From Tetracentron sinense (Eukaryota > Streptophyta > Magnoliopsida > Trochodendrales > Trochodendraceae): DNA of 64,000 bases. Within the stretch, counting starts at the first letter, position 1; each line of letters starts with the position of its first letter. This document shows positions 13,895 to 14,042 of the stretch, in pieces. The DNA is taken from NCBI GenBank assembly GCA_015143295.1, contig CM026562.1, forward strand, positions 15,838,041-15,902,040, given 5' to 3'. The notes below the pieces were generated by a model, which made no database searches, had not been told where the DNA came from, and saw nothing but the letters and a program-made list of their open reading frames with translations. Made by a program: the position numbers and the translations under genes.

Positions 13895-14042
13895 GTACGC
13901 AGTTGTAGCTTATTTAATTATCCGTAAATTTAACTGTTAAGTATTAATTGATTGTGTACGTACTTGGCATGTTATATATGTATATATACCTACATGTATA
14001 CACTGTTGATGCATGGATTAACTCCGCTAGTTAAAATTTTAG
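13895..14042 (+). other. Candidate spliceosomal intron between Gag and protease
   Basis: 148 bp, AT-rich, beginning CAAG|GTACGC and ending ATTTTAG|GAACC. A branch-like ATTAAC lies 21-22 nt before the acceptor. Read unspliced, the Gag frame meets TAG 12 nt into the insert. Removing the insert joins the Gag-side frame (corrected for the extra G) to the protease frame exactly at the conserved chromovirus Gag-PR boundary. Element 2 carries the same 148-bp interval (48870-49017) with donor GTATGC and acceptor TTTCAG. What is seen: the sites, the length and the phase. What is inferred: that it is spliced. Confidence 0.72.

What the first reader, a model, noticed from the sequence alone, without database searches (positions are those of the whole stretch)
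13895..14042. A 148-bp spliceosomal-type intron at the Gag/protease boundary of a Tekay-like chromovirus
Seen: GT...AG ends in good context (CAAG|GT, TTTTAG|G), AT-rich body, branch-like ATTAAC 21-22 nt before the acceptor, and an in-frame TAG a few codons after the donor. Removing it links Gag-side coding to the protease frame exactly where related elements are continuous. Known: chromoviruses of this clade normally have one gag-pol frame, and Ogre elements (Tat lineage) use a spliced intron at another place, between PR and RT. Inference: splicing sets the Gag to Gag-Pol ratio here, replacing a frameshift or readthrough.
Basis: partly seen in the sequence, partly recalled or inferred. Interest (0 to 1): 0.87.

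Follow-up and report, generated by a model that had tools for sequence, protein, structure and literature searches.

The report
Spliced intron splitting Gag from Pol
A group of plant jumping genes carries a small intron exactly between its capsid gene and its enzyme genes, so that, most likely, unspliced RNA makes only capsid and spliced RNA makes capsid plus enzymes.

Summary
The insert is real and very probably a spliceosomal intron. Window 13895-14042 (148 bp, GT..AG) splits a conserved Gly codon between Gag and protease; the window's second copy has it too. In the host genome two exact flanks lie 133-163 bp apart at 618 places and 0-30 bp apart at 13, all exactly 0. Two partial deletions were found (gaps 124-132 not searched). 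The intronless copies fall in several subfamilies, as expected if spliced RNA was sometimes reverse transcribed; six of ten checked show both LTRs and different target duplications. More distant families carry inserts at the same codon whose bodies are mostly no more alike than shuffles, yet keep donor CAAG|GTACGC (17 of 17), a YTRAY branch motif 20-25 nt before the end (18 of 20; shuffled mean 2.1) and AG (15 of 17). Outgroup families in this genome run through the site without insert. Simplest history: one gain, repeated exact losses. Unspliced RNA ends Gag inside the intron; splicing opens Gag-Pol. Gag/Gag-Pol ratio control is the likeliest role but inferred: no RNA data were at hand, and some intronless copies keep open frames. 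The window copy itself is damaged upstream of the donor. New variant of a known kind (Ogre-like, other lineage and position).

The parts
13895..14042 (+). 148-bp intron (GT..AG), copy 1
   Evidence: same insert in copy 2 and in 618 places with exact flanks
13891..13900 (+). splice donor CAAG|GTACGC
   Evidence: CAAG|GTACGC in 17 of 17 parsed inserts of other families; GT in 49 of 49 copies of this family
14018..14022 (+). branch-like TTAAC, A 21 nt before the acceptor end
   Evidence: YTRAY in 49 of 49 family copies; 18 of 20 inserts incl. other families
14041..14042 (+). acceptor AG (TTTTAG here, TTTCAG in 27 of 29 near copies)
   Evidence: 15 of 17 in other families, two of them after hand correction of the parsed end
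13906..13908 (+). TAG that would end Gag a few codons into the retained intron
   Evidence: 29 of 29 near copies; an in-frame stop somewhere in the intron in 20 of 20 diverse copies
12645..13865 (+). gag frame (capsid, zinc knuckle); in this copy it ends before the donor
14043..17368 (+). second exon: protease, RT, RNase H, integrase, chromodomain
17225..17365 (+). chromodomain (PF00385, 25.4 bits against a cut-off of 25.1)
12288..12299 (+). primer-binding site TGGTATCAGAGC (matched to initiator tRNA-Met from memory)
48870..49017 (-). the same intron in the second copy
45249..50628 (-). internal part of the second copy, 96.9% identical

Best explanation
A spliceosomal intron sits at the Gag/protease boundary of a clade of chromodomain-bearing Ty3/gypsy elements. 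Shown from DNA: it lies in one conserved Gly codon, keeps donor, branch motif and acceptor while its body drifts to saturation between families, is missing to the base in copies of several subfamilies, and is absent from outgroup families. Follows from that: both RNA forms occur in the life cycle, since copies with the intron come from unspliced RNA and exact losses point to spliced RNA that was reverse transcribed. Inferred: unspliced RNA is genome and Gag mRNA (Gag ends inside the intron), spliced RNA is the only mRNA for Gag-Pol, so the splicing rate sets the Gag to Gag-Pol ratio; the non-consensus but conserved donor GTACGC would keep splicing partial.
For: Exact gap spectrum: 13 of gap 0, none of 1-61, one of 69, one of 118, 618 of 133-163. 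Intronless rows are scattered: 11 changes for 13 rows on both sides together (at least 6 forced), 11 for 12 on the protease side alone (at least 4 forced), 9 for 12 on the gag side alone (at least 7 forced). Six intronless copies with both LTRs and different 5-bp target duplications. Donor, branch, acceptor kept where bodies are saturated. All 100 listed of the 618 read GT after CAAG although the pattern did not ask for it. Insert lengths fall in all three classes mod 3, so the stretch is not coding. Outgroup families continuous.
Against: No RNA evidence. Two of 20 diverse copies and two of 17 other-family inserts lack AG; L094 and L111 lack the branch motif in the window tested. Left and right flanks of some copies have different nearest relatives, so recombination may have spread the intronless state; on the gag side L021 and L028 are sisters, and the label is slightly clustered (31 of 500 shuffles as low). 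One family inside the clade was intronless in all six copies fetched, and some intronless copies keep open frames, so the intron can be done without.
Confidence: 0.8

Rival explanations
1. It is a real intron but is spliced by default; its role is RNA export or expression, or it is tolerated baggage, and Gag excess is made another way.
For: Intronless copies and one intronless family exist, some with open frames.
Against: 618 of 633 exact-flank places hold an insert of 133-163 bp, so the usual template is unspliced RNA; unspliced RNA closes the frame inside the intron in 20 of 20 diverse copies.
Confidence: 0.14
2. Not an intron: a spacer between two frames, with Pol made by frameshift, readthrough or re-initiation.
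For: The protease frame is open from 13952 upstream of the acceptor in the window copy.
Against: The two frames do not overlap in the window family type (stop at 13906, opening at 13952); lengths vary over all classes mod 3; exact GT..AG losses; conserved branch motif.
Confidence: 0.03
3. The intronless state is old and was spread by recombination between co-packaged RNAs, so the exact junctions say little about splicing.
For: Outgroup families lack the insert; flanks of some copies disagree; slight clustering on the gag side.
Against: Families with saturated bodies have the insert at the same base; L019 nests with L079 and L086 on both sides; L108 and L119 nest inside other insert-bearing families.
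Confidence: 0.05

Closest known systems
Ogre intron (Ty3/gypsy, Tat lineage)
   Same: An intron spliced from only part of the transcripts opens the rest of the polyprotein (PMC6317226 section 13; the primary papers were not held).
   Different: [quoted passage not shown] this one lies between Gag and protease in an element with a chromodomain.
BARE1 and EVD (Ty1/copia)
   Same: A short intron near the Gag/protease boundary used to separate Gag from Gag-Pol; AT- or U-rich, good plant splice sites (PMC3735527 and PMC8892269 passages).
   Different: Reverse logic: there the spliced RNA makes Gag only and the unspliced RNA makes Gag-Pol.
Bianca (Ty1/copia)
   Same: Two ORFs set apart by about 172 bp on average.
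   Different: Another superfamily; splicing not stated in the section seen.
Tekay-clade chromoviruses such as Bongo of beet
   Same: Chromodomain, LTRs of 2.5-3 kb, 5-bp target duplications (PMC3605345 passages).
   Different: Reported with gag and pol in one continuous frame.
Foamy viruses (recalled, not from a call)
   Same: Pol comes from a spliced RNA.
   Different: There Pol is made without Gag; a retrovirus, unrelated intron.

Membership tests
U2-type spliceosomal intron | GT..AG ends kept across relatives | tested here: met
   GT 49 of 49 and AG 47 of 49 in the family; GT 17 of 17 and AG 15 of 17 in other families
U2-type spliceosomal intron | branch motif at a plausible distance | tested here: met
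   18 of 20 inserts, shuffled mean 2.12, highest 8 in 2000 rounds; the rows are related, in 8 similarity groups
U2-type spliceosomal intron | removed exactly from RNA | not testable with these tools
   no RNA reads; indirect: 13 exact genomic losses
chromovirus | chromodomain after integrase | tested here: met
   PF00385 just above cut-off, with SH3_Tf2-1
Tekay clade | place in RT, RH and INT trees | not tested
   no named reference sequences at hand
Tekay clade | long LTR, chromodomain before the 3' LTR | tested here: met
   aligned LTR blocks of about 2.4-2.9 kb with 5-bp duplications in six copies; pol ends at 17368, LTR-like repeat from about 17685; not specific to Tekay
Ogre / Tat lineage | no chromodomain; intron between protease and RT | tested here: not met
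BARE1/EVD-type splicing | splicing closes pol and yields Gag-only RNA | tested here: not met
   retention closes the frame; naturally intronless copies are continuous

The most novel reading that the evidence does not exclude
A chromovirus clade gained one intron at the Gag/protease boundary and has kept it as a splicing switch with a weak donor: retention gives Gag and genome, splicing gives Gag-Pol. Copies made from spliced RNA keep appearing as natural intronless mutants, so one genome holds matched sets with and without the switch.
Probability: 0.65. Interest if true: 0.75.

Novelty: new variant of a known kind. Interest (0 to 1): 0.64.

Why it matters
How plant Ty3/gypsy elements with one gag-pol frame make excess Gag is poorly known. 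Here one clade left the single frame for an intron, kept it over deep divergence and shed it repeatedly. That makes the question testable in one genome with natural variants and gives a DNA record of which RNA form is reverse transcribed. It also warns annotators: in these elements gag and pol look separate or broken although the element may be whole.

Tried and rejected
Frameshift or readthrough: set aside because the frames do not overlap in the window type and the stretch behaves as non-coding. Recent single insertion: set aside because other families have saturated inserts at the same base. Intronless copies as one clade: the first tree, of near copies only, allowed clustering (12 rows, 5 changes, shuffled mean 10.1) and the nearest gag-side relative of 11 of 13 was then another intronless copy; with 20 diverse insert-bearing copies most of that went away, and on the gag side 5 of 12 now have an insert-bearing copy as nearest. 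Viral contigs gave ten pattern matches, not followed up, and no relative. P0122 as a bait found one other protein. Host guess (Oleaceae, from genome size and 178-bp satellite) was not tested. Dropped rows: one search left out 13 near-identical insert-bearing rows and L087 of 61; one search parsed 17 inserts of 20 loci (L108 has none, L102 lacks the motif, L103 gave no protease hit), and the ends of L093 and L110 were corrected by hand; L131 is not in the tree, which flags long branches (L101, L127, L128). In one search L090 is a very long branch. One search lists 150 of 14868 candidates and favours continuous copies by design, so no share of intronless copies follows from it.

Full report
Observation. 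Of 120 listed protein relatives (of 1838 hits) 99 run on across the point..RVFALT..DVVTG^TL..RVLIDTGSTHSF, with at least 15 residues before it; 9 start just before it; 12 did not fit the motif used. The window's two halves meet in that Gly codon. Domains: gag, zinc knuckle, protease, RT, RNase H, integrase, SH3, chromodomain.

The window copy is damaged: its long Gag frame ends at 13863-13865, before the donor, and the other 39 of the 40 scored genome matches differ from it in length there. A second copy in the window (45249-50628, minus strand) has the same insert. This one locus would not make Gag-Pol by splicing; the family is what matters.

Gap spectrum. Two exact flanks of 10 and 14 bases were sought in the host genome (1.16 Gb). 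Gap 0-30: 13 hits, all of gap 0. Gap 31-61: none. Gap 62-92: one, of 69, an internal deletion that keeps GT, TTGAC and CAG. Gap 93-123: one, of 118, donor lost. Gap 133-163: 618. Gaps of 124-132 were not searched. The reversed-pattern control gave 0 each time. Thirteen exact against two inexact losses is what reverse transcription of spliced RNA would leave, and not what ordinary deletion would.

Where intronless copies sit. Near copies alone suggested partial clustering (12 rows, 5 changes). With 20 diverse insert-bearing copies the 13 intronless rows need 11 changes (bootstrap 10-12, at least 6 forced, 218 of 500 shuffles as low). On the protease side alone 12 rows need 11 (9-12, at least 4 forced, 296 of 500). 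On the gag side alone 12 rows need 9 (9-10, at least 7 forced, 31 of 500). L019 sits with L079 and L086 on both sides; L021 and L028 are sisters on the gag side. So there were several losses, fewer than 13, and recombination blurs the count, since left and right flanks of some copies have different nearest relatives. Of 10 intronless copies whose outer parts were fetched, six show both LTRs and six different 5-bp target duplications; for the other four the comparison gave no clean pair of ends. The six are separate insertions.

Constraint. In 49 insert-bearing copies of the family the body columns differ in 5.1% of cells on average; +1 and +2 never change, the A of AG is changed in two, +4 differs in 12% and +5 in 6%; the branch pentamer varies only where YTRAY allows. 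All 100 listed of the 618 read GT. In near copies the insert varied no more than its flanks, but those were chosen for likeness to the query.

Other families. P0122, a gag fragment from a contig of 942 bases, leaves the conserved path right after VVQG, as a retained intron would make it do. With it, 150 places of 17914 candidates were scored in the host genome. Of 20 fetched, 17 parsed inserts begin CAAG|GTACGC at the same codon, 15 end in AG there, one locus has no insert and is exactly joined, two did not parse. Sixteen are 116-148 bp long and one 316; lengths spread over all classes mod 3. Bodies match that of the window's second copy no better than the best of 50 shuffles in 14 of 17, while the adjacent protease DNA is 61-71% identical. 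Eighteen of 20 inserts, three of them from the window family, have YTRAY with the A 20-25 nt before the end; shuffled mean 2.12, highest 8.

Direction. An 80-residue piece of a continuous relative was used to seek continuous copies: 150 scored of 14868 candidates, 20 fetched, 20 without insert. Nine belong to more distant families, three to the window family, one to the L092 family, six to one intronless family inside the VVQG clade, one stands alone. In a tree of 60 protease-side pieces (28 intronless) the distant families part with 100/99 support; inside, insert-bearing and intronless rows mix (13 changes in all, 11-14, at least 8 forced). One gain and repeated loss is the simplest reading; the deepest forks are unsure. 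Some intronless copies keep long open frames, so loss is not at once fatal.

How it works. Shown in DNA: position, signals, exact losses, retention in most copies. It follows that unspliced RNA is the usual template and that spliced RNA exists. Inferred: unspliced RNA yields Gag with a few intron-coded residues and spliced RNA yields Gag-Pol. The donor GTACGC departs from GTAAGT (recalled consensus) at +4 and +6 and is yet the same in 17 of 17 other-family inserts, which would suit partial splicing. In several continuous families the same codons read AAGGTAC, so the donor may have been made from the old Gly-Thr codons; that is a guess.

Known relatives. A 2025 review says plant LTR elements generally lack introns, naming Ogre and EVADE as exceptions (PMC12786077, passages). 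A 2019 survey reports one ORF for most groups and two ORFs set apart in Bianca and Ogre (PMC6317226, passages and sections 9 and 13). BARE1 and EVD splice the other way round (PMC3735527, PMC8892269, passages). In sunflower the spliced elements seen by nanopore were copia and Tekay was absent from the expressed set (PMC7730604, passages). Spliced CRM reads are reported in maize (PMC7010299, passages). Beet Tekay elements have one frame (PMC3605345, passages). Nine answered searches on the subject listed no report that I recognised of an intron at the Gag/protease boundary of a chromovirus; listings were capped and most subscription papers are not held.

Noticed in passing
window 1775-7764, 24758-41612, 54437-57600: Large arrays of a 178-179-bp satellite surround the elements; the arrays are 70-90% alike between units.
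   Followed up: partly
window 7783-12283 and 17685-24757: Nested and inverted LTR pieces around copy 1, including LTR 3' ends at 10240, 12283, 18324 and 24757; the history of the nest was not worked out.
   Followed up: partly
window 59586-61865, minus strand: Pieces of a third, more diverged relative (78-82% identical) with a primer-binding site at 61857.
   Followed up: no
L112-L116, L118: One family inside the intron-bearing clade had no insert in six of six copies fetched; it may have lost the intron for good.
   Followed up: partly
L124-L127, L129, L130: In continuous outgroup families the junction codons read GAAG|GTAC, a ready-made donor-like motif, which hints at how the intron could have arisen.
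   Followed up: no
P0122 (247 aa, contig of 942 bases): A gag fragment from elsewhere ends ..DDVVQGTSSQSFITAWY, as if read into a retained intron at the same codon; the intron may occur in other species.
   Followed up: partly
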